DNA of 64,000 nucleotides from Rhodococcus qingshengii JCM 15477 (GTDB lineage Bacteria; Actinomycetota; Actinomycetes; Mycobacteriales; Mycobacteriaceae), in assembly GCF_023221595.1 (NCBI RefSeq), contig NZ_CP096563.1, positions 1,904,501 to 1,968,500 on the forward strand, read 5' to 3'. A program made the position numbers and the translations under genes. Below are positions 2,963 to 64,000 of the stretch, piece by piece (position 1 is the first letter of the stretch; the number at the start of each line of letters is the position of its first letter). Below the pieces are notes generated by a model. That model saw only the letters and a program-made list of their open reading frames with translations. It had not been told where the DNA came from and did no database searches.

Positions 2963-2984
2963 TCGTCCGTTTTGTCCCTGGTTC

Positions 2985-3001
2985 TCGAAAGTATGTTTTG
3001 A
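2985..3001 (+). promoter_or_regulatory. Degenerate LexA (SOS) box-like site before the HNH gene
   Basis: The bases TCGAAA-GTAT-GTTTTGA resemble the actinobacterial SOS box TCGAAC-N4-GTTCGA, with the left arm and GTT conserved but the right arm decayed (8 of 12 defined positions). It sits directly on the gene start. In Mycobacterium tuberculosis several 13E12-repeat genes are known LexA targets, so a site here makes sense, but the match is weak. Confidence 0.35.
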
Positions 3002-3003
3002 GC

Positions 3004-4242
3004 ATGGACAGTCGGGAAGCGTGGCAACTGGATGGCGTGGGCCTCAAGAGTGAGGTTCTGGATCTGGTGCGCGCCCGGCACGAGTTGCAGTCGCGGATGG
3101 TGTTGCTGATCGTGGAGATGTTTTCCCGTGAGGTTCTTGGCGGGAAGGGTTTTCGGGCGATCGCGCAGTGGTTGCATGGGTCGACGAATCTGGAGATCGG
3201 TGAGTGCAGTCTGCTGGTCGGGTTGGCGCGGTTGTTGATGCTCGAACCCGTGGTGGGCGATGCGTTTCATCGCGGTGACGTGGATGCGTTGAAGGCGCGG
3301 CAGGTGGCGTCGTTTTGTCAGCATCCGCCGAAGAACATGACGCCGGCGGATGTGGACAAGGCCCGCGGGATCTTGTTGGGCCTGGCGTCGAAGAACATTG
3401 CGGATTGTGATGCGGTGCGGGCGGCGATCCGGCGGATCGAGAAGCAGTACGGCAAACGCGAGGACGGGGTTCCGGTCGGGGAAGATTCGGAGCGGAACGA
3501 GTTCTACGCGTCGAAAGGCCTGTACGGCAGAGTAACTGTGAAGGGCGACCTAGATGCTGTGAACGGGGCCCGGTTGATCACATTGTTGTCGAGCCTGTCG
3601 GCTCCGACACCGGAGAAGGACGGCGCCAAAGACACCCGCACCCCGGCATTACGACGTGCGGACGGGTTCTGCGAACTGTTGCGCCGGTACGAGCGGGCGG
3701 GGTTGGGTCCGATCGAAGGCGGAGTGAAACCGCACATCACCGTTACCGCGTCCGCGAAAGACATGACCGACCTCAAGGCGTTGAAAGACCTCCTGCCGTC
3801 CACCGAAGAACTCGGATTTGCGTGGACCGATTGGGTGGGCCCGATCAGTATCGACACTGCGCGGATGTTGGCGTGCGACTGCACCGTGACGCGGATCTTG
3901 TTGGACGAGAATGGTGTTCCGCTCGACTGCGGTAAGGAAGCGAGAACAGCAACGGTGCCGCAGCGGCGGGCTCTTGCGGTTCGTGATGGTGGGTGCGCGT
4001 TTCCGGGATGTGGGACACCGCCGGGGTGGTGCGATGCCCATCATATTGTTCACTGGAACGATGGCGGCCCAACGGGTCTCGACAATCTGATCTTGTTGTG
4101 CGGTCATCACCACCGGACGATGCACCACACGGAGTGGCGGGTGGAGATCGGGCCGGATCGGAGGTCGGTGTTCTACCCACCGATGTCTGTTGATCCGCAT
4201 CAGCAGCCGATCGGCGGGAACAGCCCACCCACAGCGGCGTGA
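3004..4242 (+). CDS. DUF222 domain HNH endonuclease signature protein (13E12 repeat family)
   Basis: The N-terminal 300 residues are the DUF222 helical region. The C-terminus carries a clear HNH nuclease motif: CAFPGC (about residues 335-340), WCDAHHIVHWNDGGPT, then LILLCGHHHRTMH, giving the paired cysteine/histidine zinc ligands and catalytic His. Family members are present in many dispersed copies in mycobacteria and rhodococci and are regarded as mobile or selfish; their targets are mostly unknown. ATG 3004 is used; an in-frame TTG at 2998 is possible, and no good ribosome binding site is visible for either. The gene separates the OYE gene from mftE, is followed by its own hairpin and is therefore likely an insertion into the mycofactocin cluster. 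Confidence 0.85.
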   Translation: MDSREAWQLDGVGLKSEVLDLVRARHELQSRMVLLIVEMFSREVLGGKGFRAIAQWLHGSTNLEIGECSLLVGLARLLMLEPVVGDAFHRGDVDALKARQVASFCQHPPKNMTPADVDKARGILLGLASKNIADCDAVRAAIRRIEKQYGKREDGVPVGEDSERNEFYASKGLYGRVTVKGDLDAVNGARLITLLSSLSAPTPEKDGAKDTRTPALRRADGFCELLRRYERAGLGPIEGGVKPHITVTASAKDMTDLKALKDLLPSTEELGFAWTDWVGPISIDTARMLACDCTVTRILLDENGVPLDCGKEARTATVPQRRALAVRDGGCAFPGCGTPPGWCDAHHIVHWNDGGPTGLDNLILLCGHHHRTMHHTEWRVEIGPDRRSVFYPPMSVDPHQQPIGGNSPPTAA

Positions 4243-45008: not shown

Positions 45009-45413
45009 TCGTCGGTCTGTCGGCGAGTACCGATAGTCTCGATCAGCGACTGTCGAATCTTGTTCGAGCTCAGACACCCAGTACCCGGCGGCCCTGTAAA
45101 TTGTCCGAGGTGACTGATGTGGATTGGGGTGTAGATCGTCGGTTGCAATTGATTGTCCCAGGGGGAGAGGTGTCGCGCGCCGCGTCTGAACGGTGCGTTT
45201 CGGCAATGCGATCGGGGGGTAGATGAGCTGGGCGATTTGTAACGAATTGCAACAAAACCGTCGATACACCGGGGTATGGATTTCTCTTGTCACCTATGTA
45301 TCGGAGACAATGGGTGGTTCTGGCTCGTCGAGGTTGGATGAGGTCGGTAGCTGCTGCGAATCGGACGTTCGGCTCGCACGGGTGCGCAATGGTGTGGAAG
45401 AGAGGCTGTGGGC
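45009..45413. other. Intergenic leader of the NRPS gene
   Basis: About 405 bases without a convincing gene. A 64-codon frame (45223-45417) has no recognised domain. I could not find an IdeR-type iron box or a clear promoter. GAGAGG lies just before the chosen NRPS GTG. Confidence 0.5.
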
Positions 45414-48400
45414 GTGAATTCGCTGGGTAACGGAGAACTGGGGAGCGGCAAGCCGGAGGTCGGCAGCTCGCCGGAAGACGTTCAGCGATCCGACGCATTC
45501 CCGCTTTCCGCGGCCCAGCTCGGTATGTGGTTCGCGCAACACCTCGATCCCGCCGTTCCGGTCAACATCGCTCAGTACGTCGAACTCCGTGGTGCTCTGG
45601 AACTTGACGCCCTTCGGCAGGCCTGCGCAGACGCCGGTCGCGAAATCGGGTCGGCCTTCGTCCGGATCTTCGAGATCGACGCCCAGCCTTACCAGATCAT
45701 CGACCCCACACTCGATGATTCGGTCGGTTACGTCGACCTTCGTAGTGAAGACGACTCGCACGACGCTGCCATGCGGTGGATGCGAGCAGATCGCAGCCGG
45801 CCGATCGACATGCTCACGGACCGCTTGATCTCTGCCACGATCCTGCGGCTCGGCGAGAATCGCTACTACTGGTACACGCGGGTCCACCACACAATTCTCG
45901 ACGGATTCGGTGCGTCGACGTTCGTCACTCGTGTGGCGGAGCTGTACTCGGCGCGCGTGGAGGGCCGGGATCCGGAGCCGAGTGAGGCCTCCGATCTCCG
46001 GAACGTCTACGAGGTGGACAACAAGTACCGCCAGTCGAGTCGTTTCGAAACCGATCGCAAGTACTGGGCAGACAAGATCGAGAATCTCGACGAGATCTCG
46101 AGCCTCGCGGGTCGAAGTGCCGCGCCGGCTCCAGTCAGTCGGATCGACAGTGCAGCGCTGTCCAACCACGTCGAGGCTCTGCTCGGGCGGTTCCTCGAGC
46201 GCATCGAGAAGACCACTGTTGCCGGCACTGTCGTCGCGGCGTTTGCGGCGTACCTCGCTCAGATGACCGGGCGAGAGGACGTGTCGCTGAGTCTGCCCGT
46301 TTCCGGTCGAACAACAGCCGTGCTGCGTCGATCCGGAGGCATGGTCTCCAACGTCGTGCCGCTGCGACTGACCGTCACTGCGGACACCACCGTCCAGGAG
46401 CTTCTGGACGACGTCAGGAACGAAATGTCCGGCGCACTGCGCCACCAGCGATACCGACACGAGGACATGGTTCGCGGCGGTGACGGGCCGGGCCGGGGCG
46501 GATTCTTCGGCCCGTGGATCAACATCATGATGTTTTCCACCGAGTTGGCGTTCGGGCCCCTCGTCGGCGAACTTCACATCTTGTCCACGGGTTTGATCGA
46601 AGACCTCGGTGTCAACCTGTATCAGAGCGTCGGCGATACCCGCACACACATCGACTTCGAGTCGAATCCCAATCTGTACGCGCCCGCGGACGCCCAGCGA
46701 AATCACTCGCGGTTCGTAGAGTTTCTCGAGAAGTTCGTCTCGGCCGAAACGAGCCGCAAGGTCTGGGATCTTCCTGTCGCAACCGACGAGGAGCGAAACA
46801 AGGTTGCCTTGTGGAACCGCACCGGCTTCCACGTTGCCTCGCAGACCATCACCGAAGCATTCGAGCGTCAGGTCGAGAGAACTCCCGATGCCACCGCTGT
46901 CATTTTCGAAGGCGCCAGCCTCACGTACGCCGAATTCGACTCTCGCGCAAATGGTTTGGCTCGTCAACTCATCGCCATGGGTGTTGGGCCCGAATCGCTT
47001 GTAGGACTGTCGATCCGCAGGTCTTTGGACTTGATGGTCGGTCTGTACGCGATTGCCAAGGCCGGCGGAGCCTGGGTACCGGTGGATCCCGACCACCCAG
47101 CCGACCGCACCGCCTACATTCTCGAGTCGGCGCAGCCCACGTGTGTTGTGACCACTGCGCGGGACGACGTGGATCTGCCCTCGGGCACACGGGTCATCGA
47201 GATCGACACACTGGACTATGGGCAGCTCGACAGCAGACCGATCGTCAACGCGGATCGCCTGTCTCCCTTGCATTTCTCGAACACTGCGTACGTGATCTAC
47301 ACCTCGGGTTCGACCGGTCGACCCAAGGGTGTCGCGGTCACTCACTCGGCGATCAACAATCAGCTTCAGTGGATGAACGCCGAGTACGGGCTTTCGGCGT
47401 CGGACATCTACCTGCAGAAGACCGCTACGACATTCGACGTGTCGCTGTGGGGATTTTTCATGCCGTTGCAGGTCGGCGCCACGCTCGTCGTCGCGACTCC
47501 GGACGGTCATCGAGACCCGATCTACGTGGCGAACAAGATCGCGGAGCTCGGCGTCACGATCACCGACTTCGTGCCATCCATGCTCACGCTGTTCACTGCG
47601 AATGCACCTGCCGGATCTTGTGATTCGTTGCGCCACGTGTTCGTCATCGGCGAGGCGCTCCCGCCCGAGACGTCTTCCGCCTTCCGCGAACTCTGTGGAG
47701 CCGGACTGCACAACCTGTACGGTCCGACCGAAGCCGCGGTATCGGTCACGTACTACGAGGCCGTGGCCACGGATACTACTTCCGTGCCGATCGGTATGCC
47801 GCAGTGGAACACTCAGGCGCACGTACTGGACGGACAACTTCGCCCGACCCCCATCGGGCAGCCGGGTGAGCTCTATCTCGCCGGCGTTCAACTCGCGCGC
47901 GGATACGTTGGTCGACCGGACCTGAGCTCGGATCGGTTCGTAGCCAATCCGTACGGCACGGCCGGTGAGCGTATGTACCGGACCGGCGACCTCGTTCGTC
48001 GCCGTGAGGACGGAAATCTCGACTACATCGGGCGTACAGACTTCCAGGTGAAGTTCCGCGGGCAGCGCATCGAACTCGGCGAGATCGAGACCGTCCTTCT
48101 GGCGCACCCCGACGTTTCGCAGGCTGTCGTTTTGGTGACCGTCACCCCGACCGGTGATCAATTGGTCGGCTACGGCGTGCCGGGTCCAGGCCGAAACATC
48201 GATGCTGCGGTGCTCAGTGAGTTCGCCGGCCGAAGCCTCCCGTCGTACATGGTTCCGGCCGCGTTGATGGTGCTCGATGCGTTGCCGCTCAACACGAGTG
48301 GCAAATTGGATCGTGCCGGGTTGCCCGAGCCGGTGTTCGCGAGTGCGAAGCAGTACCGCGAGCCCCGCACCGAAATCGAACGCATCGTGGCGGACGTGTT

Positions 48401-51400
48401 TGCCGACGTTCTCGGTGTCGAGCGCGTCGGTATCGATGACGACTTCTTCGAGCTCGGTGGAAACTCTCTGGTTGCAACACAATTAGTGACGCGAGTGGGT
48501 TCGGCATTGGGAGTGCAACTCGGCGTTCGAGAGCTCTTCGAATCCACCACGGTCGCCACCCTGGCGGCCCGCGCCGAGTCGGTGGCGGGCAACGCCAGGC
48601 AGCTCACCCCGCTGATCGCCAAGCCTCGTCCCGAGGTCGTCCCGCTCTCGCTTGCGCAGCAGCGCATGTGGTTCATCAACCGTCTCGATCCGTCGACGCC
48701 CGCCTACAATCTTCCGTTCACGGTCCGGCTCACCGGTTCGGTGGACCCGTCCGCCCTGCATGCCGCGGTGATGGATCTTCTCGAGCGACACGAGTCCTTG
48801 CGGACGATCTACCCTGATGTCGACGGAACCGCGCAACAGCTGGTTCTGCCGGTCGACCGGGCCGCGGTGGAGTTGAATCCGGTCAAGATTCGGAATTCGC
48901 ATCTCGACGCGGCGCTGTTCGACGTGGCGTCTCGCGGCTTCGACGTGACGCTCGAAATCCCGGTACGGGTTGCCCTCTTCGAGGTGTCTCCGACGGACTA
49001 CGTCCTGGTGATGGTTCTCCATCACATCGCTGCAGACGGACTGTCGTTCCGTCCGCTCGCACGTGACCTTCTCGTCGCCTACTCGGCGCGAAGTGAGAAG
49101 TCTGCGCCGGCGTGGACGCCGCTGCCAATTCAGTACGCCGACTACGCCCTGTGGCAGCGCGAAGCACTGGGATCCGACGAAGACCCGCGCTCGGAGTCGT
49201 CTCGCCAGATAAACTTCTGGCGCCGGGCACTTGCCGATCTGCCGGATCAGTTGGATCTGCCGACCGACCGACCTCGTCCTGCCATCGCGTCCAATCACGG
49301 CGCCAAGCACCATTTTCAGATCAGCGAACGCACGACGCGCAAGTTGAACGAGTTGGCGCGCTCGAGGAGCGTCTCGCTGTTCATGGTGTTGCAGGCGGCA
49401 TATGCAACGCTGTTGAGCCGGCTCAGTGGTACCTCCGACATCGCGATCGGTGCCCCGATCGGTGGGCGAGGCGATCAAGCGCTCAACGACGTGATCGGCA
49501 TGTTCGTGAACACCCTGGTGCTTCGCACCGAGGTCGATCCGAACGAACGATTCGAAGAGTTGCTCGCTCGGGTAAGGGAATCGGGCTTGTCTGCCTACGG
49601 GCATGCCGATGTGCCGTTCGAGCGGTTGGTCGAAGTTCTGAGTCCGGCGCGTTCGCAGGCTCGACACCCGCTGTTCCAGGTTGCGCTCACTGCGGAGATC
49701 AGTGGACGACGCGAACTGGAATTCTCAGGTGTCAAAGCAGTTGCAGCTGAATTGGAAGTACCGGTCGCCAAATTCGATCTCGAGCTCATGGTGTCCGAGA
49801 ATCCTGAAGGCAGCGAAGACTCGGACGTCTTGAGCGCCACCTTCACCTATGCCACGGACCTGTTCGATCCGGCCACGGTGAACACTTTCGCTACTCGGTT
49901 CGTGCGCATCCTCGATGCCGTGGCTACCCGACCTGAAACGATCGTCGGCGATATCGACCTGCTCTCACGCTCCGAGCGCACCGATCTGACGGTCGTAGCC
50001 GCGGATGACACGATGCCCCGGCAGAGTCTCGTCGACATCTTCCTGTCCGGCACGGCTGAGGCGGATTCGGTTGCTGTGCGCTTCGAGGGTCGATCGATCA
50101 CCTATCGAGAGCTCGATGAGCAGTCGTCGAAGCTCGCACGGGTTCTGATCGGACGTGGCGCCGGCCCCGAGACCATTGTTGCTCTCGCCTTTCCTCGCTC
50201 GTACGAGATGGTCTGTGCAGTATGGGCGGTGGCGAAGTCAGGGGCGGCATACGTCCCAGTCGACCCGAGTTATCCGGAAGATCGTGTCCGGCACATGCTG
50301 GCCGATTCTTCGGCCGCGATGGGACTCACGTCGGGACAGTTCGTAGATCAGCTTCCTGCGGTCACAGAATGGTTGGTCCTTGACGGCCAGGCGCTGAACG
50401 GAGAACTGTCGGCGCAATCTCCAGCGCCGGTCACGGACGAGGACCGAATCGCTCCGATTCACAGTTCTCACGTTGCATATGTCATTTACACATCCGGTTC
50501 CACGGGAAAACCGAAGGGTGTCAGCGTCACTCACGGTGGACTCCGTGGGGTCAGAGACGCAGCACAGCGTCGCTACGAGGTAGAACAGTCCTCGCGCTTC
50601 CTCCATATCTGTTCACCGAGCTTCGACCCGTCGGTACTCGAATGGATGGTCGCCTTCTCCGCGGGTGCAACTTTGGTGATCGTTACGTCGACAATTATCG
50701 GTGGACACGAGTTGTCGGATCTTCTTCATTCCGAGAAGGTCACACACGCGATCATCACTCCCGCAGTACTCGGGACCATGGAGCCGGCAGAGCTGCCTGA
50801 ATTGCGAGTCGTCTCCGTCGGCGGTGACGTGACCACTCCCGAGTTGCTGGCGAAATGGGCCCCAGGGCGCGCCTACTTCAATGGGTATGGTCCGACCGAG
50901 ACCACTATCATCTCGTCGTTCGGCGATCTCGCGATCGGCCGATCGATCGACATCGGGCGTCCCGTCGAGGGCATGTCGGCACTGGTACTCGACGAGCGTC
51001 TGCATCCTGTTCCAGTCGGTACCAGGGGAGAGCTCTACTTTGCGGGCGCTGCATTGGCTCGCGGCTACCATGAGCGGCGAGGCCTTTCTGCGGAACGGTT
51101 TGTCGCCAACCCGTATTCGCCGGATGGCGAGCGAATGTACCGGACCGGCGATGTCGTGCGCTGGACCGGCGGAGACGCGCGCGGTGACGCGGGGGTTCTC
51201 GAATACGTCGGCCGCAGTGACTTCCAGGTCAAGGTTCGCGGATTCCGTATCGAACTCGGTGAGATCGACGCAGTTCTGTCCTCGCACGAGTCTGTGCGCT
51301 TCGCGGTGACGGTCGGAAGCGAAGGCGCGGCGGGTGTCACAACCCTCGTTTCCTACGTCGAACTGGCTGACGGGTCGAGTTTCGATCGGGACGTGCTCGC

Positions 51401-54400
51401 CTCGTTCGTGGCGGAGGCTCTGCCGAGCTACATGGTTCCGTCCGTCATCATGGAACTCGCTGAGGTTCCGTTGACCCCGGTGGGCAAATTGGATCGCCGG
51501 GCTTTGCCGGAGCCTGTTTTCGAGGTCCGCGAGTTTCGTGCACCCACCACGCCGGTGGAAGAGATTGTCGCGCAGGTGATTGCGGATGTTCTCGGAGTGG
51601 AACGAGTCGGCCTCGACGACGACTTCTTTGAACTCGGTGGCAACTCCCTGGTGGCTACTCAGGTCACCTCCCGATTGGGGCGGGCGCTCGACACTACGGT
51701 GCCGGTGCGAACGCTGTTCGACGTTTCCACCGTCGAGGCGCTCGCCGCACACATCGAGTCGCACGTAGGTAGCGGCGGGCAGAAGGCGCTCGTCGCACAG
51801 GTGCGTCCCGCGGAAATTCCGTTGTCGCTGGCGCAGCAGCGCATGTGGTTCCTGAACCGCTTCGACACCGACTCAGCTGCTTACAACATCACTTTTGCTC
51901 TGCACCTGACTGGTCATCTCGATACTGCCGCGATGGAAATGGCGCTGGAGGACGTACTGGCCCGGCACGAGGTGCTCCGAACGGTATATCCGGACGGGGC
52001 TTCCGGACCGAAGCAGTCGATTCTGTCGCTTTCGGAGGCGTTCGACGGGCTGACCGTGGAGTCGGTTTCGGATCCGGACGAGCTCGAAAGTCGAGTCGCT
52101 GCAATCGGATCCTCAGCGATCGACGTCACTGTCGACGTGCCGATCCGTGTCCGCCTGTTGACGGTCAGCGACACCGAGCACACCCTTGCGATCGTGGTTC
52201 ATCACATCGCCGCTGACGGTTGGTCGATGGCGCCCCTGGCTCGCGATGTCATGATTGCCTACTCGGCACGCAAGGACGGGATCGCGCCGGCGTGGCAGCC
52301 GTTGACTGTGCAGTACGCCGACTATTCGTTGTGGCAGCGTGAGGTTCTGGGGTCGGAAGACGACTCGGAATCACTGATCTCGCAGCAGATCTCGTACTGG
52401 ACCGAGACTCTGGCAGACCTACCGGATGTGATCGAGCTTCCGTCGGACCGGTCTCGGCCTGATGTGGCGTCGATGCGCGGCGAGCGATTCGCGTTCGAGA
52501 TCTCCGGGGATGTGCACCGTCGATTGGACGCGCTGGCACGGGAGAACAACGCGACGCTCTTCATGGCGTTGCACTCGGCGCTTGCCGTTCTGATGGCCCG
52601 ACTGAGCGGAACCTCGGACATCGCCGTGGGCACTCCCGTTGCCGGTCGTGGCGACGAGGCGCTCGACGATCTCGTCGGCATGTTCGTCAACACGCTTGTT
52701 CTGCGGACCGAGGTCGACCCGGCCCAGGCATTCACGGATCTGCTGGCTGCGGCGAGTGATTCTGTGCTCGGAGCGTTCGCTCACTCGGACGTGCCCTTCG
52801 AGCGGTTGGTGGACGTCTTGGCTCCCGCCCGGTCGCAGGCCAGACATCCGCTGTTCCAGGTCGTGCTGTCCTTGCAGAATCTCGCGCAAACGGCATTGGA
52901 ACTGCCGGGACTGGCGATCAAGGCCGCCGAAATCGACACGACCACTGCCAAGTTCGACCTCGAACTCGCAGTAACAGAGTCGATCGGCGAAGACGGGATC
53001 CAGCAAGGGCTCTCGGCCGAATTCACGTTTGCTGCAGATCTGTTCGACGTTTCGACGGTCGAGGGGTTTGCTCGGCGTCTGGTTCGTATCCTCGAGACCG
53101 TCGTGTCGGTTCCTTCGATTGTCGTCGGTGACATCGATATTCTCGATGCGGCCGAGCGGGGTGTGCTGGCCGATGTTCATGGAGGTCAGTCGGTCTCGGG
53201 AACCCTGGTCGAGATCCTCACAGCGGCGGCCGCTTTGGATCCGTCGGCGGATGCGATTCGCTTCGACGGTCAGTCAATCAGCTACCGCGAACTCGACGAG
53301 CGGTCGTCGCGACTCGCTCGTGTTCTGATTGAGAAGGGCGTCGGGCCGGAGGATCGGGTCGCGATCGCGATTCCGCGTTCGGCCGATTCGGTTCTCGCTC
53401 TGTGGGCAGTGGTGAAAACGGGTGCTGCATTCGTGCCCGTCGACCCGACGTATCCGGTTGACCGTATCGCCCACATGATCTCCGATTCCGGTGCGGTGCT
53501 GGGTCTTGCGCTCAGTGACGTCGAGGCAGGATTGCCGTCGGCGTTGACGTGGGTTGTTCTCGACGACGAGAAGACAGTGGCGGCGTGCGCGGCAGAATCT
53601 TGCGCGCCGGTGAGTGATTCGGATCGACGCAGTGCGATCGACGAGCGGCAGCCTGCTTACGTCATCTACACCTCTGGCACCACGGGTCTGCCCAAGGGCG
53701 TTGTGGTCACCAATGCGGGTGTGGCGAACTTCTGCGCCGAGCAGGTCGAGCGCTATGCGCTGACCGCGGATGCTCGAACGCTGCATTTCGCCTCGCCGAG
53801 TTTCGATGCTTCTGTTCTCGAGTTGCTGATGGCATTCGGAGCAGCATCGACGATGGTGATTGCGCCGACGACGGTGTACGGCGGCGCGGAATTGGCCGAG
53901 ATCTTGCGCTCGGAGGGCGTGACGCATGCGTTCGTGACGCCCGCTGCGCTGGCATCAGTGGATCCGAGCGGGCTCGACGCGTTGCGGGTGGTTGTCGTCG
54001 GTGGCGAAGCCAGTTCGCGGTCTCTCGTTGCCAAGTGGGCGGTGCCGCTTCCGGATGGCGGTGTGCGTGGATTCTTCAATGCGTACGGTCCGACGGAGTC
54101 GACAGTCGCCTCGAACATCAGCGATACGCTGACCGCGTTTGATCGTATGAACATCGGCGGCCCGATTCGGGGAATGGCCGCGCGGATCTTGGACGGCCGC
54201 TTGCAGCCCGTTCCGGTTGGTGTCGCAGGTGAGTTGTACGTGTCGGGTGTTCAGGTCGCTCGTGGATACCTGGGACAGCCGGCATTGACAGCGGGTCGTT
54301 TTGTCGCAGACCCGTTCGGGGCGCCGGGAGAGCGGTTGTACCGCACGGGTGACGTGGTCCGGTGGATCGACGGTGGCGCAGTGGAGTACGTGGGCCGCAG

Positions 54401-57400
54401 TGACTTCCAGGTCAAGATCCGTGGGTTCCGTATCGAACTCGGCGAGATCGAGGCCGCGCTGACCCGTTGCGCGGGCGTTGCGCAAGCTGTTGCTCTCGTT
54501 CGTTCCGACGATCACTTCGGAGATCGTCTCGTTGCATACGTCGTGCCGCAGGCCGGCGCCGAGGTGGATCCCGCACAGGTCATCGAGTCGGTGTCGACGT
54601 TCCTGACCGGCTACATGGTCCCCGACTCGGTACTGGTGCTCGATTCGATTCCGTTGACCACCGCGGGCAAGACGGACATCAAGGCTCTGCCCTCGCCCGT
54701 ATTCGAGTCCAAGGTGTACCAGGCGCCGATCACGACCGTCGAAGAGACTGTCGCGCAGGTGTTCTCCGAAGTTCTCGGAGTCGCACAGGTTGGCCGCGAC
54801 GACGATTTCTTCGAACTCGGCGGCAACTCGTTGATCGCGACCCGTGTCGCCGCTCGGCTGGGAGAGGCGCTCGACACAAGCGTTCCGGTTCGTGCGCTCT
54901 TCGAAGCGTCGACCGTGCAGTCACTCGCCGTCCGGCTCGAGCTGCACGCCGGTTCGGGCGCCACCGCCCCACTGGTGCAGCAGCCCCGGCCAGCTCGGAT
55001 CCCACTTTCGTTGGCGCAGCAGCGCATGTGGTTCCTGAACAGGTTCGAACCCGCGTCGGCAGTGAACAACGTCCCGGCGGCGATCAGGATTTCGGGCGCC
55101 CTCGATGTGGCAGCTCTTGACGCCGCCGTGATCGATGTCGTGGGCCGACACGAATCACTGCGAACTGTGTATCCAGACGTCGACGGCGTCGGCTATCAGG
55201 ACGTCCTCGACGTCCAAGACGTTGTCGTCGATCTCAGCCCCGTGTCGATCACGGAAGATCGCCTGGCTGCGGGCGTCGCCGAGCTGGCGACAGTCGGCTT
55301 CGACGTGACGTCCGAAGTCCCGTTGCGCGCCAAGCTCTTCAAAGTCGGCGACAGCGAATACGTCCTGGTGTTCGTCGTGCATCACATCTCGACCGACGGT
55401 TTCTCGATGGGTCCGTTGACCCGTGACGTGATGGTTGCCTACGAAGCACGTACACGAGCGTCGGTGCCGGCTTGGACGCCGTTGCCGGTGCAGTACGCCG
55501 ATTACTCGTTGTGGCAGCGTGAGGTTCTCGGGTCCGAGGACGATCCGCGGTCCGTGATCGCGAAGCAGATTGCGTTCTGGTCGGATGCGTTGGCTGATCT
55601 TCCGGAGCAGTTGGATCTGCCTGCCGATCGTCCGCGTCCCGAGGTCGCTTCAGGGCGCGGAGCCGAGGTCGAGTTCGATATCGACGCCACCCTGCACGAA
55701 GCTGTCAATTCGATTGCGCACAGCAGTAACTCGACACCGTTCATGGTTGTTCACGCAGCGCTCGCCGTCGTACTTTCTCGTTTGTCCGCAACGACCGACA
55801 TCGCGATCGGTACACCGATCGCGGGTCGCGGTGAGGCGCAGCTCGACGATCTGATCGGTATGTTCGTCAACACTTTGGTGTTGCGCACCGAGGTTGATCC
55901 GTCGATGTCGTTCACGGATCTGTTGGCTTCGGCGCGTGAGGTGGATTTGCAGGCGTTCGCGCATGCGGATGTTCCGTTCGAGCGTGTGGTGGAGGTTCTC
56001 GATCCGGTTCGTTCGCAGGCTCGTCATCCGTTGTTCCAGGTGGCGTTGACGTTCCAGAACCACGAACAGACAACGCTCGAACTGGGCGACCTCGAAGTGT
56101 CGATCGAAAGTGCCGATCTTGCGTTGGCGAAATTCGACCTCCAGTTGACCCTGACCGAACGAACCGACGAGGCCGGCGCACCCGCCGGAATGTCCGCCTC
56201 TTTGACGTATGCGACGGATCTGTTCGACGAGTCGACCGTTGTGGAATTCGGTGATCGGCTGGTAAGGACCTTCCGTGCGGTGACTGCTGATCCCACCGTA
56301 GCGGTGGGTGACGTTGACATCTTGGTCGATGGAGAACGAAACCTGCTGTCCCGCTTCAGTGCCGGCCAGATCGATCATGGTGTGGATTCGACGTTGTCGG
56401 CGTGGTTCGATGATGCTGCTGCGCGGTTTGGTGATCGGGTTGCGGTGCGGTTCGGTGGCGAGTCGTTGTCGTATGGTGAGTTGTCGGTGCGGGCTAATCG
56501 TTTGGCGCGCAGGTTGATTGCTCAGGGTTGTGGTCCGGAGTCGTTGGTGGCGGTGGCGTTGCCGCGGTCGGCGGATCTTGTGGTGGCGTTGTTGGCGGTG
56601 GTGAAGTCCGGTGCGGGGTATTTGCCGGTAGATCCGTCGTATCCGGCTGATCGTGTCGAGTTCATGTTGGCTGATGCTGCTCCGGTGGCTGCGATTTCGT
56701 GGTCCGGGCGTGAGTTGGTGTTGCCCGCTGGTTTGCCGGTGGTTGATATCGACGCGGTGGATGTGTCGGAGTTCGATGGCTCGGTGGTTTCGGATGCGGA
56801 TCGTGTTGCGCCGTTGCGGTCGTCGAATGTTGCGTATGTGATTTACACGTCGGGTTCGACGGGTCGCCCGAAGGGTGTGCAGGTTCCGCACACGACGGTG
56901 GCGAAGTTGTTTGCGAATACCGAGGGTGTGTACGGGTTCGACGAATCCGATGTGTGGACGATGTTCCACAGTTATGCGTTCGACTTCTCGGTGTGGGAGT
57001 TGTGGGGTCCGCTGTTGTACGGCGGCACGTTGGTGGTTGTGGATTATGTGACGTCGCGGTCGCCGGAGCAGTTCTTGGAGTTGCTTGCTGCTGAGCGGGT
57101 GACGGTGCTCAATCAGACGCCGTCGGCGTTCTATCAGTTGGCCGAGGCTGATCGGTTGGCGTCGGAATCCGGTCGGGCTGCTGAGTTGTCGTTGCGGTGG
57201 GTTGTTTTCGGCGGCGAGGCGCTCGAGTTGCGTCGCTTGTCGGATTGGTACGGCCGCCGCGGTGACTTCGCGCCGACGTTGGTGAACATGTACGGCATCA
57301 CGGAGACGACGGTGCATGTGAGCCATCGTGTGTTGGATGCTGCGTTGGCGGCGGATGCGTCGGCGAGTGTTGTGGGTCAGGCTATTTCGGGTCTGCAGGT

Positions 57401-60400
57401 GTTCGTGCTCGATACGCGTTTGGCTCCGGTGCCTGTTGGTGTCGCGGGTGAGATGTATGTCTCTGGTGTTCAGTTGGCTCGGGGTTATCTGGGTCAGGCG
57501 GGGTTGACGTCGACGCGGTTTGTGGCGAATCCGTTCAATGCCGGCGAGGTGTTGTACCGCACGGGTGACGTCGCGTCGTGGAACAGTGCTGGTGATTTGG
57601 AGTATCTGGGTCGCGCGGATGATCAGGTGAAGATCCGTGGTTTCCGGATCGAGATCGGTGAGATCGAGTCTGCGGTGTTGGCGGATGTGTCGGTGGCGCA
57701 GACGGCGGTGGTTGTTCGTGAGGATTCTCCGGGTGATCAGCGGTTGGTGGCGTATGTGGTTCCGGCTGCGGGTGTGAGCGTTTCGGTCGACGATCTTCGG
57801 GTGTCGGTGGGTTCGTTGTTGCCGGAGTACATGGTGCCGTCGGCGTTTGTGGTGTTGGATTCGATTCCGTTGACGGTGAACGGGAAGTTGGATCGTCGGG
57901 CGTTGCCGGTTCCGTCGTTGCAGGTTGCGGTGTTCCGTGCTCCGACGTCGGTGGTGGAAGAGGTTGTTGCGCAGACGTTTGCGGATGTTCTGGGCGTCGA
58001 GCGTGTTGGTTTGGATGATGATTTCTTCGCGCTCGGTGGTAATTCGCTGATTGCGACGCAGGTGACGTCTCGGTTGGGTCAGGCGTTGGATGCTTCGGTG
58101 TCGGTGCGGGAGTTGTTCGAGGCGTCGACGGTGGAGGCGTTGGCTGCTCGTTTGGGTTCTCATGTCGGTGGCGGTTCACGTGCGGCGTTGACTGCGCAGG
58201 TGCGTCCGGTTCGGGTTCCGTTGTCGTTGGCGCAGCAGCGCATGTGGTTCCTCAACCGATTCGACACCGATTCTGCTGTCAACAATGTCCCTGTTGCCGT
58301 TCGGCTCACGGGTGCGCTCGATCTGGCGGCCCTGAATTCGGCAGTTCACGACGTTATCGGCCGCCACGAGGTTCTGCGCACGGTCTACCCCGAGGTCGAC
58401 GGCGTCGGCTACCAGAAGATCTGCTCGGTAGAAGATGTCTCGATCGATCTCGGCGCAGAACGCGTCACAAACGACCGAATCCAGGCGGAGCTGTATTCGT
58501 TCTTCGCCCAGGGCTTCGATGTTACTGTCGAGGTTCCGTTGCGCGCCAAGCTTTTTCAGGTCGCCGATGACGACTTCGTGTTGTCGTTCGTGATGCATCA
58601 CATCTCGACCGACGGCTTCTCGATGGGCCCGTTGACCCGCGACGTCATGACCGCCTACTACGCCCGAACCAACGGCCAGGCTCCGACCTGGACGCCGTTG
58701 CCGGTGCAGTACGCCGACTATTCGTTGTGGCAGCGTGAGGTTCTCGGGTCCGAGGACGATCCGCAGTCCATGATCGCGAAGCAGATTGCGTTCTGGTCGG
58801 ATGCGTTGGCTGATCTTCCGGAGCAGTTGGATCTGCCTGGTGATCGTCCGCGTCCCGAGATTGCTTCAGGGCGCGGCGCCAATCACAGTTTCACCATCGA
58901 ACCGCAGCTGTGGTCTGAGCTGGACGAACTGGCCAAGGCAACGAACGCAACTCCGTTCATGGTTGTTCACTCGGCTCTGGCGGTGCTGTTGGCACGACTG
59001 TCCGCGACGACCGACATTGCGATCGGTGCCCCGATCGCGGGTCGTGGTGAAGCCGAGCTCGACGATCTGATCGGTATGTTCGTCAATACCTTGGTGCTGC
59101 GTACCGAGGTTGATCCGTCGATGTCGTTTGCCGAGTTGTTGGCGTCGGCGCGTGAGGTGGATTTGCAGGCGTTCGCGCATGCGGATGTTCCGTTCGAGCG
59201 TGTGGTGGAGGTTCTCGATCCGGTTCGTTCGCAGGCTCGTCATCCGTTGTTCCAGGTGGCGTTGACGTTCCAGAACCTTGGACAGAGTGCTCTCGAACTG
59301 CCCGGACTCACCGCCGCTGCTGTGGAATTCGACGCAGCACTGGCCAAGTTCGATCTGCAATTCACACTTGAAGACGCCGCTGACGCCGGTATGTCCGGCA
59401 CCCTGACCTACGCGACGGATCTGTTCGACGCGTCGACAGCGGCCGAGTTCGCTGATCGGTTCGTGTCCGTCCTCCGTGGCGTTGTCGCGAATCCGGCCGC
59501 TGCCGTTGGCGACGTGGATGTTATGAGCGCCTGTGAGTTGGATCGCGTTCTGTCATGGAGCGACACGGGTGTCGACAGTGGTGTGGATTCGACGTTGTCG
59601 GCGTGGTTCGATGATGCTGCTGCGCGGTTTGGTGATCGGGTTGCGGTGCGGTTCGGTGGCGAGTCGTTGTCGTATGGTGAGTTGTCGGTGCGGGCTAATC
59701 GTTTGGCGCGCAGGTTGATTGCTCAGGGTTGTGGTCCGGAGTCGTTGGTGGCGGTGGCGTTGCCGCGGTCGGCGGATCTTGTGGTGGCGTTGTTGGCGGT
59801 GGTGAAGTCCGGTGCGGGGTATTTGCCGGTAGATCCGTCGTATCCGGCTGATCGTGTCGAGTTCATGTTGGCTGATGCTGCTCCGGTGGCTGCGATTTCG
59901 TGGTCCGGGCGTGAGTTGGTGTTGCCCGCTGGTTTGCCGGTGGTTGATATCGACGCGGTGGATGTGTCGGAGTTCGATGGCTCGGTGGTTTCGGATGCGG
60001 ATCGTGTTGCGCCGTTGCGGTCGTCGAATGTTGCGTATGTGATTTACACGTCGGGTTCGACGGGTCGCCCGAAGGGTGTGCAGGTTCCGCACACGACGGT
60101 GGCGAAGTTGTTTGCGAATACCGAGGGTGTGTACGGGTTCGACGAATCCGATGTGTGGACGATGTTCCACAGTTATGCGTTCGACTTCTCGGTGTGGGAG
60201 TTGTGGGGTCCGCTGTTGTACGGCGGCACGTTGGTGGTTGTGGATTATGTGACGTCGCGGTCGCCGGAGCAGTTCTTGGAGTTGCTTGCTGCTGAGCGGG
60301 TGACGGTGCTCAATCAGACGCCGTCGGCGTTCTATCAGTTGGCCGAGGCTGATCGGTTGGCGTCGGAATCCGGTCGGGCTGCTGAGTTGTCGTTGCGGTG

Positions 60401-63400
60401 GGTTGTTTTCGGCGGCGAGGCGCTCGAGTTGCGTCGCTTGTCGGATTGGTACGGCCGCCGCGGTGACTTCGCGCCGACGTTGGTGAACATGTACGGCATC
60501 ACGGAGACGACGGTGCATGTGAGCCATCGTGTGTTGGATGCTGCGTTGGCGGCGGATGCGTCGGCGAGTGTTGTGGGTCAGGCTATTTCGGGTCTGCAGG
60601 TGTTCGTGCTCGATACGCGTTTGGCTCCGGTGCCTGTTGGTGTCGCGGGTGAGATGTATGTCTCTGGTGTTCAGTTGGCTCGGGGTTATCTGGGTCAGGC
60701 GGGGTTGACGTCGACGCGGTTTGTGGCGAATCCGTTCAATGCCGGCGAGGTGTTGTACCGCACGGGTGACGTCGCGTCGTGGAACAGTGCTGGTGATTTG
60801 GAGTATCTGGGTCGCGCGGATGATCAGGTGAAGATCCGTGGTTTCCGGATCGAGATCGGTGAGATCGAGTCTGCGGTGTTGGCGGATGTGTCGGTGGCGC
60901 AGACGGCGGTGGTTGTTCGTGAGGATTCTCCGGGTGATCAGCGGTTGGTGGCGTATGTGGTTCCGGCTGCGGGTGTGAGCGTTTCGGTCGACGATCTTCG
61001 GGTGTCGGTGGGTTCGTTGTTGCCGGAGTACATGGTGCCGTCGGCGTTTGTGGTGTTGGATTCGATTCCGTTGACGGTGAACGGGAAGTTGGATCGTCGG
61101 GCGTTGCCGGTTCCGTCGTTGCAGGTTGCGGTGTTCCGTGCTCCGACGTCGGTGGTGGAAGAGGTTGTTGCGCAGACGTTTGCGGATGTTCTGGGCGTCG
61201 AGCGTGTTGGTTTGGATGATGATTTCTTCGCGCTCGGTGGTAATTCGCTGATTGCGACGCAGGTGACGTCTCGGTTGGGTCAGGCGTTGGATGCTTCGGT
61301 GTCGGTGCGGGAGTTGTTCGAGGCGTCGACGGTGGAGGCGTTGGCTGCTCGTTTGGGTTCTCATGTCGGTGGCGGTTCACGTGCGGCGTTGACTGCGCAG
61401 GTGCGTCCGGTTCGGGTTCCGTTGTCGTTGGCGCAGCAGCGCATGTGGTTCCTCAACCAGTTGGATACGAGCTCGGCAGGGAACAACGTCCCGGTTGCGA
61501 TAACTCTCACCGGAGAACTGGACGTCTTGGGGCTGGAGCAAGCGGTCGCCGACGTTATCGGCCGTCACGAGGTTCTGCGCACGGTCTACCCCGAGGTCGA
61601 CGGCGTCGGCTACCAGAAGATCGTTGCACCGGCTGATGTCGACGTGAACCTCGCTGCAACCTCAGTCTCGGATTCGGAGATCGTTTCCGAGGTAACGAAC
61701 TTCGTAGCGGCAGGCTTCGACGTGACGGCCGAGGTGCCGTTGCGCGCCAAGCTTTTCCAGATCAAGGCCGACGAGCACGTTCTGGTATTCGTGGTGCATC
61801 ACATCTCGACCGACGGTTTCTCGATGGGCCCGTTGACCCGCGACGTCATGACCGCCTACTACGCCCGAACCAACGGCCAGGCTCCGACCTGGACGCCGTT
61901 GCCGGTGCAGTACGCCGACTATTCGTTGTGGCAGCGTGAGGTTCTCGGGTCCGAGGACGATCCGCAGTCCGTCATCGCGCAACAGATCACTTACTGGGCG
62001 CAAGCACTGGACGGCGTGCCCGAACAGTTGAATCTTCCGGGGGATCGGGCTCGGCCGGCGGTATTCTCCGGTCAGGGAGCGACATTCGAATTCTCGATCG
62101 GTCAGGAATTGCATGAGCGGCTGATCAGCGTGGGCCGGGAACACAATGCGTCGATGTTCATGGTGGTCCATGCGGCTCTGGCGTCGCTTCTCGCTCGTCT
62201 GTCGGGAACAACGGACATCAACATCGGTGCACCGATGGCCGGGCGAGGTGAATCCGAACTCGACGATTTGATCGGAATGTTCGTCAACACCCTGGTTTTG
62301 CGTACCGAGGTTGATCCTTCGGCGGCGTTCACAACACTTCTGGCCTCGGCTCGGGAAACCGACCTTCAGGCGTTCGCGCACTCGGACCTTCCGTTCGAGC
62401 GGCTCGTGGAAGTGCTGGATCCCGTTCGGTCGAGGGCACATCACCCGCTGTTCCAGGTGGCATTGGCATTTCAGAACCTGGGGCAGAACTCGTTGGCTCT
62501 GCCCGGTCTGACGGCGGCCGAGTTCGAAATCGACGAGACCGTGGCCAAGTTCGACCTGCAGCTCACGATCAGTGAGGTATCAGAAGGGCTGTCGGCGACG
62601 TTCACGTACGCGACGGATCTGTTCGACGAATCGACCGTCCGCGGATTCGCCGCACGATTGATGCGCATTCTGAACGGAATTGCGACGGACCCCGCAACTT
62701 CAGTGGGTGACATCGAAATCCTCGACGCGTCCGAGCGTGAGGTTCTGACGAGTCAAAGGGCTTCGTCAGGAGTAGCGCAGGCGCCGTTGGCCGAGATTCT
62801 TGCCGACGCTGCTGCGCGCTACCCGGACAACGTCGCTTTGCGCTACCCCGGCACGGCGCAGGCCGCGGCCGGTAGGTCCATGACGTATCGCGAGGTCGAC
62901 GAGTGGTCGTCGAGGCTGGCCCGCGTTTTGATCAACCGTGGTCTCGGGGCTGAAGATCTTGTGGCGGTGTCGATTCCGAGATCCGTCGAATCGGTACTCG
63001 CGGTCTGGGCAGTGTCGAAGACCGGGGCAGCGGTCGTTCCGATCGATCCGCACTATCCGGCAGACCGTATCGCGCACATGCTCAGCGACTCGGGTGCGAA
63101 GGTTGGCCTGACCCTCGACGTCGAACGTCCGAATCTCGCCGACGACGTCGAGTGGTTGGTCGTGGACGGACCGCTCGGCGAACAGATGATCGCCGGAGTG
63201 TCCGGAGCGCCAATAGATGCCGAGGAACGTGTCCGTGCACTGACGACTGCTCATCCGGCTTGGGTCATCTACACCTCCGGCACGACAGGACTGCCGAAGG
63301 GCGTTGTCGCGACCAACGCGGGACTGGCGAGCTTCAGTGTCACGCAGGCCGCGCATTACCTCGTGAAGCCCACCTCGCGGACATTGCACTTCGCGTCACC

Positions 63401-64000
63401 GAGTTTCGACGCGTCGATGCTCGAGTTGTTCCTCGCGGTGGCCACCGGCGCGACGATGGTCATCGTCCCGCCTGGCGTGTACGGCGGCGACGAACTGGCT
63501 GAGGTGTTCCGTAGCGAACGAGTCACGCATGCGTTCATCACACCCGCTGCCCTGGCGTCGATGGACCCGAGCGGCCTGGACGACCTGACGGTGGTAGGCG
63601 TGGGTGGCGAAGCGTATTCGCCGGAACTGATCAGCAAGTGGACGACAGGGGACGGATCGGCCGCGTCGGCTTCGGCTCCCAGGACATTCCTGAATGTCTA
63701 CGGCCCGACCGAGACGACGATCGTGACGAACGTCAGCGTTCCGCTTCTGCCCGGTGACCGAATGGACATCGGCGCCACGATCGGTGACATGGCAGCATTC
63801 GTCCTGGACACACGACTCAATCCAGTTCCACTGGGAGTCTCGGGCGAGCTGTATCTGTCCGGTCCTCAGGTGACCCGCGGCTATCATCGTCGTCCAGGCT
63901 TGAGTGCCGATCGATTCGTGGCAAACCCGCACGGTAATCCGGGCGAGCGAATGTACCGAACCGGTGACGTGGTGCGCTGGGTCGCTGGAACGGCACCCTC
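45414..64000 (+). CDS. Giant non-ribosomal peptide synthetase, 3' end beyond the window
   Basis: A single open frame of more than 6,195 codons with no stop to base 64000. The order is C(starter-like)-A-T, then four C-A-T modules and a sixth C-A that is cut at the window edge after its A7 motif. Every C domain has the HHxxxDG motif (HHTILDG at 45885, then HHIAADG at 49020 and 52200, HHISTDG at 55380, 58596 and 61797). Carrier serines lie at 48465, 51645, 54828, 58044 and 61245 in GGNSL. No epimerisation, methylation or thioesterase domain is visible so far. GTG 45414 has GAGAGG eight bases upstream; GTG 45408 is also possible. The product is unknown; a lipo- or acyl-peptide is suggested by the starter condensation domain. 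Partner genes must lie downstream. Confidence 0.95.
45480..48600 (+). other. NRPS module 1: starter C, A, T
   Basis: The condensation domain begins at [14 protein letters not shown] and has [11 protein letters not shown]. Having a C domain before the first A domain suggests that the first amino acid is acylated, as in lipopeptides. The A domain gives specificity positions D-V-W-D-F-I-L-V-S by aligning [24 protein letters not shown] and [11 protein letters not shown] to GrsA; I cannot assign a substrate. The carrier serine is at 48465. Confidence 0.7.
48625..51780 (+). other. NRPS module 2: C, A, T
   Basis: C begins [18 protein letters not shown]. Specificity positions by hand alignment are D-P-L-I-S-G-G-I-I (from [25 protein letters not shown] and [11 protein letters not shown]). 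Proline at position 2 is unusual and I do not know a matching substrate. The carrier serine is at 51645. The following C domain has HHIAADG, with no sign of a dual condensation/epimerisation type motif. Confidence 0.65.
51805..54960 (+). other. NRPS module 3: C, A, T
   Basis: The A domain positions read D-A-L-F-V-G-A-V-A (from [25 protein letters not shown] and [11 protein letters not shown]). This is a hydrophobic pocket, suggesting an aliphatic or aromatic residue, but not a firm call. It is a close relative of the module 6 A domain. The carrier serine is at 54828. Confidence 0.6.
54985..58180 (+). other. NRPS module 4: C, A (threonine type), T
   Basis: The A domain positions read D-F-W-N-V-G-M-V-H (from [25 protein letters not shown] and [11 protein letters not shown]), which differs from the established threonine code DFWNIGMVH by one conservative change. 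The A and T domains from 56378 belong to the 1,880-bp repeat. The carrier serine is at 58044. Confidence 0.8.
55929..56061 (+). repeat. 133-bp identical tract in C domains 4 and 5, copy 1
   Basis: Identical to 59145-59277 (offset 3,216, not that of the large repeat). It encodes [20 protein letters not shown] and the following [19 protein letters not shown] segment. The flanking sequence differs, as expected from gene conversion. Confidence 0.8.
56378..58257 (+). repeat. Direct repeat copy 1 (module 4 A-T block, 1,880 bp)
   Basis: Appears identical by reading to 59579-61458, at an offset of 3,201 bases (1,067 codons, in frame). It begins at the start of the A domain ([20 protein letters not shown]) and ends in the first motif of the next C domain ([11 protein letters not shown]). 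Both edges break sharply. Confidence 0.9.
58617..58769 (+). repeat. 153-bp identical tract in C domains 5 and 6, copy 1
   Basis: Identical to 61818-61970, at the same 3,201-base offset as the large repeat. It follows the HHISTDG motif and covers [20 protein letters not shown] onwards. It suggests the original duplication reached into the C domain and was later broken up. Confidence 0.8.
59145..59277 (+). repeat. 133-bp identical tract in C domains 4 and 5, copy 2
   Basis: Partner of 55929-56061 in the C domain of module 5; identical base by base while the sequence on both sides diverges. Confidence 0.8.
59579..61458 (+). repeat. Direct repeat copy 2 (module 5 A-T block, 1,880 bp)
   Basis: Second copy of the block at 56378-58257, identical in the stretches compared line by line and in opposite-strand translations covering most of the block. 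No intact mobile-element ends flank it, so homologous recombination is the more likely cause. Confidence 0.9.
61400..64000 (+). other. NRPS module 6: C and partial A
   Basis: The C domain has HHISTDG at 61797. The A domain positions are D-A-L-F-G-G-V-I-V (from [25 protein letters not shown] and [11 protein letters not shown]), a hydrophobic pocket similar to module 3. The window ends just past the YRTGD motif, before the A8-A10 region and carrier domain. Confidence 0.6.
61818..61970 (+). repeat. 153-bp identical tract in C domains 5 and 6, copy 2
   Basis: Partner of 58617-58769, within the C domain of module 6. Confidence 0.8.

What the first reader, a model, noticed from the sequence alone, without database searches (positions are those of the whole stretch)
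56378..61458. 1,880-bp apparently identical duplication of an A-T didomain in adjacent NRPS modules
The copies lie 3,201 bases apart in frame, with sharp edges at the beginning of the A domain and in the first C motif. Lack of differences implies either very recent duplication or continuing gene conversion. The natural recombination boundaries show how this enzyme adds a residue: an A-T plus C1 unit is exchanged as a block.
Basis: seen in the sequence. Interest (0 to 1): 0.7.

Follow-up and report, generated by a model that had tools for sequence, protein, structure and literature searches.

The report
Skewed, self-copying repeat in peptide synthetase
A giant bacterial peptide-making gene carries two letter-for-letter identical stretches that are most likely kept alike by copying between them, and these stretches have an extreme one-sided base composition whose direction, in the Rhodococcus loci examined, follows DNA replication.

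Summary
The repeat is real: 56378-58257 equals 59579-61458 with 0 differences in 1880 bp. It spans the A-T didomain of modules 4 and 5 of an NRPS gene, from the C-A linker to the start of the next C domain. It does not add a residue: all 6 complete orthologous genes have 8 modules, and module 4 carries one of three A-domain types among 7 genomes. They meet the sequence criteria of GRINS, described for polyketide synthases. A tracts group by genome while flanking C domains mostly group by position: concerted evolution. Two results bear on origin. One young copy pair shows 45 of 47 changes from A/C to G/T and none in reverse (mature tracts do not show this). In 38 of 38 duplicated, skewed tracts from Rhodococcus NRPS loci the G/T-rich strand follows the replication fork, including 7 tracts in 3 head-on genes. 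Most likely: inter-module gene conversion coupled to replication-strand-biased mutation.

The parts
56378..58257 (+). Repeat copy 1: end of C-A linker, A and T domains of module 4, first ~14 residues of the next C domain; 300-nt windows inside it have GC skew 0.26-0.41 and TA skew 0.36-0.58
59579..61458 (+). Repeat copy 2: the same part of module 5, 0 differences
45408..63998 (+). Gene N1 (8 modules, begins with a C domain), runs on past the window to genome C1:1978701
54999..56342 (+). C domain of module 4 (flank without intense skew)
56418..57488 (+). A core of module 4, code DFWNVGMVHK
57966..58151 (+). T domain of module 4 (LGGNSLIAT motif)
58215..59543 (+). C domain of module 5 between the copies; carries identical patches 58365-58421 and 58617-58769 shared with the C domain of module 6
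59619..60689 (+). A core of module 5, code DFWNVGMVHK
61167..61352 (+). T domain of module 5
61416..62741 (+). C domain of module 6 (flank without intense skew; patches 61566-61622 and 61818-61970)

Best explanation
[quoted passage not shown] SHOWN: the pair recurs at the same modules in three of seven genomes compared. Within those three the copies are 98.0-100% alike over the A-T block while the genomes differ by 6-13%. Flanking C domains of modules 5 and 6 follow position, not genome. Both copies carry extreme G/T enrichment of third codon positions with edges near the repeat edges. INFERRED: copying between modules keeps the copies alike and sometimes replaces the A-T of a module, changing the predicted residue. 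The skew is produced by mutation biased by replication strand (C to T, A to G, some C to G on the strand that reads in the direction of the fork), linked to recombination between repeats and spread to both copies by conversion.
For: Exact repeat. Same pair in G003 and G043. Second pair N1.7/N3-last 97-100% alike in 7 of 7 two-module relatives and 100% for N1.7/N3.6 in the window genome. Trees: A tracts pair by genome in 6 of 7 relatives (G008 unresolved); C domains before them split fully by position; one-clade tests p 1e-64 (7 N1.7 rows, those of G000 and G010 left out) and 2e-24. Skew. In the window genome's held NRPS genes 905 of 939 duplicated 150-nt windows are skewed against 193 of 3952 others. 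Of 175 A domains, 31 of 41 with G/T at third positions >0.75 have a >=95% paralogue in the held loci against 1 of 134 others (Fisher). 158 A domains of 20 NRPS genes without long repeats are unskewed. Young pair in G021: 45 of 47 changes A/C to G/T, 0 reverse, against 56:47 in two sister lineages, Fisher p 9e-10; flanks of the same gene 5:6. Fork test 38 of 38, with 7 tracts in 3 head-on genes.
Against: Conversion is inferred from sequence patterns, not observed. Only one young pair was found. In mature tracts the direction is absent or reversed: module-5 lineage changes are 35 A/C to G/T against 59 the other way, N1.7/N3 within-pair changes 3 against 9; depletion of A and C may explain this but was not modelled. 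Four relatives have the skewed block in module 5 without a >=95% partner. The head-on evidence rests on 2 independent loci. Two skewed tracts (one orthologous locus) in two genomes of another family follow the coding strand and oppose the fork; they have no >80% paralogue within their own 14-kb locus.
Confidence: 0.8

Rival explanations
1. A recent duplication added a whole module and so a residue.
For: Two adjacent identical A-T copies; true module gain does occur in the third gene of this cluster.
Against: 8 modules in 6 of 6 complete orthologous N1 genes; the sequences next to the two copies are 58% and 66% alike, and the C domains of modules 5 and 6 group by position.
Confidence: 0.05
2. 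Assembly artefact: one copy written twice.
For: Perfect identity; no reads available.
Against: 1.3 kb of other sequence lies between the copies; the same pair, with a few differences, is in two other assemblies; contig breaks at the outer edges in G010.
Confidence: 0.02
3. The skewed A-T block is a foreign cassette with its own codon usage that moved between species and modules; the skew is inherited, not made in place.
For: The module-5 block is more alike between species than its flanks (four-fold sites 79-93% against 36-74% for the C domains of modules 5 and 6, seven genome pairs) and is skewed even where no close partner was found.
Against: Several different A-domain types and, in N3, C domains too carry the same skew; in G021 the skew rose in a resident A domain since its split from close relatives; lowered diversity of third bases alone raises four-fold identity (inference).
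Confidence: 0.15
4. The skew comes from transcription (non-template strand exposed), with conversion as a bystander.
For: In 31 of the 38 duplicated tracts no conflict is seen: fork and transcription coincide in 29, and in 2 the ORF assignment is doubtful. Two unduplicated tracts of another family follow the coding strand.
Against: In 7 tracts of 3 head-on genes the coding strand is C/A-rich; the rest of the same gene is not intensely skewed, and in G021 flanks change symmetrically.
Confidence: 0.08

Closest known systems
[quoted passage not shown] 2021, as described in PMC9899208 and PMC10394414 (passages seen; the original paper is not held)
   Same: Regions of about 0.5-1 kb or more, >80% (often >90%) alike within one assembly line, with intense GC and TA skew; proposed to promote gene conversion.
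   Different: Here a pure NRPS gene, not a PKS or PKS-NRPS hybrid; the unit is A-T (or A plus half of T); partners also lie in different genes 24-37 kb apart; absolute identity; skew sign found to follow the fork in Rhodococcus.
Concerted evolution of NRPS/PKS domains (Medema et al. 2014, PMC4256081; passages seen)
   Same: Domains cluster by gene cluster rather than by position.
   Different: In the passages seen, at the level of domain trees and without nucleotide skew; here exact tracts with edges, two fixed module pairs, and positional C domains as internal control.
NRPS recombination landscape (Baunach et al. 2021, PMC8097286; passages seen)
   Same: A domains are the part exchanged.
   Different: [quoted passage not shown] these tracts carry all of A plus part or all of T, with the 5' edge in the C-A linker in 10 of 11 N1.4/5 and N1.7/N3 pairs.
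A-domain substitution in NRPS evolution (Calcott et al. 2020, PMC7486941; passages seen)
   Same: Reports a recombination hotspot between C and A domains, as at the 5' edge here.
   Different: [quoted passage not shown] no such edge in the eleven pairs here.
XUT exchange units (Bozhueyuek et al. 2024; seen only as described in a passage of the review PMC11355689)
   Same: A boundary inside the T domain; 6 of 8 N1.7/N3 tracts end at the close of LGGNSLxAT.
   Different: XUT is T1/2-C-A-T1/2 for engineering; here natural tracts run from the C-A linker to mid-T.
Wollamide A-domain recombination (Booth et al. 2022, PMC9205934; passages seen)
   Same: Intragenomic A-domain recombination; shared nucleotide skew remarked on.
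   Different: A replacement between loci; skew taken as a sign of recent divergence or duplication.

Membership tests
GRINS | Region of at least 500 bp with >80% identity to another region of the same cluster (PMC9899208) | tested here: met
   1880 bp, 100%; windows test
GRINS | Mean GC and TA skew each above 0.15 (PMC9899208) or above 25% (PMC10394414) | tested here: met
   GC skew 0.26-0.41 and TA skew 0.34-0.58 in the 300-nt windows wholly inside either copy
GRINS | Lies in an assembly-line polyketide synthase or PKS-NRPS hybrid (the setting in both descriptions seen) | tested here: not met
   Only NRPS domains in the window part of the gene; C, A, T and a thioesterase in the rest. Hence called GRINS-like, a variant, not filed as a member
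GRINS | Takes part in gene conversion | tested here: met
   Tracts group by genome, flanks by position; inferred, not observed
Concerted evolution of assembly-line domains | Paralogues within a genome more alike than orthologues between genomes | tested here: met
Tandem module duplication | Module number higher than in relatives | tested here: not met
   8 modules in 6 of 6 complete N1 genes
Threonine-specific A domain | Ten-residue code of known Thr domains | tested here: inconclusive
   DFWNVGMVHK (tenth residue K assumed) against recalled DFWNIGMVHK; no assay

The most novel reading that the evidence does not exclude
GRINS are made by replication. Wherever assembly-line modules are duplicated, recombination between the repeats at the fork leaves the strand that templates the lagging strand single, and that strand is mutated by C to T, A to G and C to G changes. 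Conversion then spreads the changes to both copies. The lowered complexity raises the chance of further conversion, so the repeat feeds itself, and the sign of the skew records the direction of the fork when it was made.
Probability: 0.4. Interest if true: 0.8.

Novelty: new variant of a known kind. Interest (0 to 1): 0.6.

Why it matters
How GRINS arise is, as recalled from the original abstract, unknown. A pure-NRPS case in which species carry the same pair in different states gives both a mutation spectrum and a strand test, and shows that the natural exchange unit here is the whole A-T, not the A core. That bears on how peptide assembly lines change residues and on where engineered fusions are tolerated.

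Tried and rejected
Module gain was tested by counting modules and rejected. Direction of the module-4/module-5 copy (gain in the window genome, or an old pair lost in relatives) could not be settled: a skewed block stands in module 5 of all 7 genomes, also in the 4 where module 4 differs; its 5' edge is alike in 6 of 7 and its 3' edge in 5 of 7. The mutation spectrum in mature tracts shows no excess toward G/T and in module 5 an excess the other way. A second young pair was sought among 410 A-domain entries (some entered twice) and none was taken up; weaker candidates at 78-80% protein identity, such as N1.3, were not pursued. The extension to two other families gave only two tracts, which oppose the fork. 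A plasmid search found 8 records with a match, none covering 80% of the repeat. Edges of the within-N3 pairs are blurred by repeated whole modules, so of the 20 pairs only the eleven N1.4/5 and N1.7/N3 pairs were used for edge counts.
Full report
1. The observation. 56378-58257 and 59579-61458 are identical over 1880 bp with no difference, in frame (offset 3201). Domain mapping places the repeat from 13 residues before the A core of module 4 through A, T and the first ~14 residues of the next C domain, and likewise in module 5. The gene, here N1, has 8 modules, begins with a C domain and continues beyond the window; two more NRPS genes follow, N2 with 4 A-T units and N3 with 7, the last ending in a thioesterase.

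2. What relatives show. N1 is complete in six genomes (G000, G003, G017, G016, G011, G008) and has 8 modules in all six. Module 5 carries the same A-T type in all seven genomes compared (86.8-96.7% between genomes). Module 4 carries that same type in G000, G043 and G003, a second type in G017 and G016 and a third in G011 and G008, 54-57% alike between types. The predicted codes printed for G000/G043/G003, G017 and G011 differ accordingly: DFWNVGMVHK, DLKNFGSDVK and DAWQFGLVQK. So the repeat is a replaced or shared A-T inside an existing module. Which state is ancestral is not decided.

3. Conversion. Within-genome identity of the two blocks is 100% (G000), 98.9% (G043) and 98.0% in G003 (2 differences in its own 1773-bp tract), while G000 differs from G043 by 6% and from G003 by 12-13%. 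A tree of the tracts groups copies by genome; holding the three module-4 copies together is rejected (p 2e-24). C domains of modules 5 and 6 group by position; those of module 4 fall into sets like its A types, with weak support at the base. A second pair joins module 7 of N1 and the last module of N3, 24 kb apart: 97.0, 97.8, 99.0, 99.9, 99.9, 100 and 100% alike in seven relatives, and N1.7/N3.6, 37 kb apart, is 100% in the window genome. Its tracts group by genome in 6 of 7 (G008 unresolved). The C domains before them split completely by position in 18 rows (G043, whose C is cut, was left out). The one-clade test gives p 1e-64 for seven N1.7 rows, with those of G000 and G010 left out. The C-domain tree carries a long-branch warning. 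Edges of the eleven N1.4/5 and N1.7/N3 pairs: the 5' edge lies 13-40 residues before the A core in 10 (one is 6 residues inside). The 3' edge lies at the close of LGGNSLxAT of T in 6 of 8 N1.7/N3 pairs (earlier in T in G000 and G021), and beyond T for N1.4/5 in two of three.

4. The skew. In 300-nt windows inside the copies GC skew is 0.26-0.41 and TA skew 0.34-0.58; in windows outside them GC skew is -0.10 to 0.17 and TA skew at most 0.29, apart from those that straddle an edge. Third codon positions are A 1, C 14, G 57, T 29% in the tracts against about A 10, C 36, G 36, T 17% in most other domains of N1. Best-fit skew edges lie within 8 residues of the repeat edges for N1.4/5 in G000 and G043, and less exactly in others. 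Duplicated windows are skewed in 905 of 939 cases in the window genome and other windows in 193 of 3952; the other nine genomes give 68-95% against 7-19%. Of 41 A domains with third-position G/T above 0.75, 31 have a >=95% paralogue among the held loci; of the other 134, one has. That one is a copy of the young pair of point 5. As a control, 20 NRPS genes of ten other genomes of the genus, with no exact repeat above 78 nt, have 158 A domains with G/T 0.37-0.55. The repeat meets both sequence criteria of GRINS as given in PMC9899208 (passages) and PMC10394414 (passages), but the gene is an NRPS and not a polyketide synthase, so it is called GRINS-like here. In the listings of searches of the open library no title or abstract start is about GRINS in an NRPS; the original GRINS paper is not held, so this is not a claim of absence.

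5. A young copy. In G021 the module-6 A domain of N1 has a 97.6% copy in another NRPS gene. Third-position G/T is 0.75 and 0.70 in the two copies, against 0.50-0.62 in six orthologues. With those orthologues as outgroup, 47 changes in the N1 copy are C>T 32, C>G 8, A>G 5, T>G 1 and A>C 1; 31 are shared by both copies. None goes from G/T to A/C. The same tract in two sister lineages gives 56 A/C to G/T against 47 the other way (p 9e-10), and the flanks of the same G021 gene give 5 against 6. The other copy, Y.1, has 34 changes, one of them G>A. The stricter count puts such changes at first and second codon positions too, which speaks for mutation rather than codon choice. It is one event. Mature tracts do not show it: lineage changes in module 5 are 35 against 59, N1.7/N3 changes within pairs 3 against 9 and shared by a genome's pair 12 against 10.

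6. Which strand. dnaA gives fork direction. In 1.51 Mb of NRPS loci from 11 genomes of the genus, 47 tracts of at least 900 bp pass the skew limits; in 47 of 47 the G/T-rich strand is the one that reads with the fork. 38 of them have a >80% paralogue in the held loci; again 38 of 38. Seven of the 38 lie in three genes transcribed against the fork (two are orthologues, so two independent loci), and there the coding strand is C/A-rich. The loci were chosen by me from search lists, part of them because they are head-on. Two of the 38 have a doubtful ORF assignment, and G002 lies near the expected terminus. In 316 kb of loci from five genomes of two other families only two tracts passed (one orthologous locus). 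They oppose the fork; a paralogue was sought only within their own 14-kb locus, where the best is 67-71%.

7. Mechanism. Conversion between A-T blocks explains identity, edges and grouping. The young copy and the fork rule point to a replication-strand-specific mutation process confined to the duplicated tract. The simplest picture is single-stranded lagging-strand template in repeat recombination, deaminated, then spread by conversion. The last steps are inference. Natural edges carry the whole A domain with the A-T interface, unlike the trend of PMC8097286 (passages). The 5' edge agrees with a hotspot between C and A in PMC7486941 (passages), and the mid-T edge recalls the XUT boundary named in PMC11355689 (passage).

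Noticed in passing
L019-L020, genome C1:1992867-2014709: Third NRPS gene has 7 modules against 2 in 7 relatives, with exact repeats up to 4467 bp: true, recent module gain in the same cluster.
   Followed up: partly
L021-L022, genome C1:3505227-3506780 and 3513081-3514634: Another NRPS gene on the minus strand holds a 1554-bp identical A-domain pair with even stronger skew (about -0.54/-0.55 on the plus strand).
   Followed up: partly
L151, first A domain of the gene starting near base 3126: Mirror skew: third positions C 0.72, A 0.15, G 0.13, T 0; best matches in G018 and G019 lie in head-on genes. This led to the strand test.
   Followed up: yes
L019:3815-4696: N2 ends in a fragment matching only the first 98 of 384 positions of the AMP-binding profile, and N3 begins with a full A domain; N1 ends in C and N2 begins with A.
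   Followed up: no
G008 C1:1057737-1071448 (L047, L048): The second NRPS gene is split into two overlapping frames of 2374 and 2377 aa; frameshift or assembly error.
   Followed up: no
N1 of G017 (L037-L039): Mosaic gene: modules 1-3 are mostly 90-99% like the window genome, but from the C domain of module 6 on it is about 70% like it, while its A6 and A8 are about 96% like G008, suggesting recombination between species.
   Followed up: partly
G000, contigs C1, C2, C5, C6: 14 equal weak matches to the DnaA family in 512-aa frames; look like copies of an insertion-sequence ATPase (inference).
   Followed up: no
window 45294-48482 and 55650-58163, minus strand: Long antisense frames (1062 and 837 aa) opposite the NRPS gene, probably a by-product of composition.
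   Followed up: no
window 2851-3400: A 550-bp stretch with GC skew 0.26 and TA skew 0.22, outside the NRPS.
   Followed up: no
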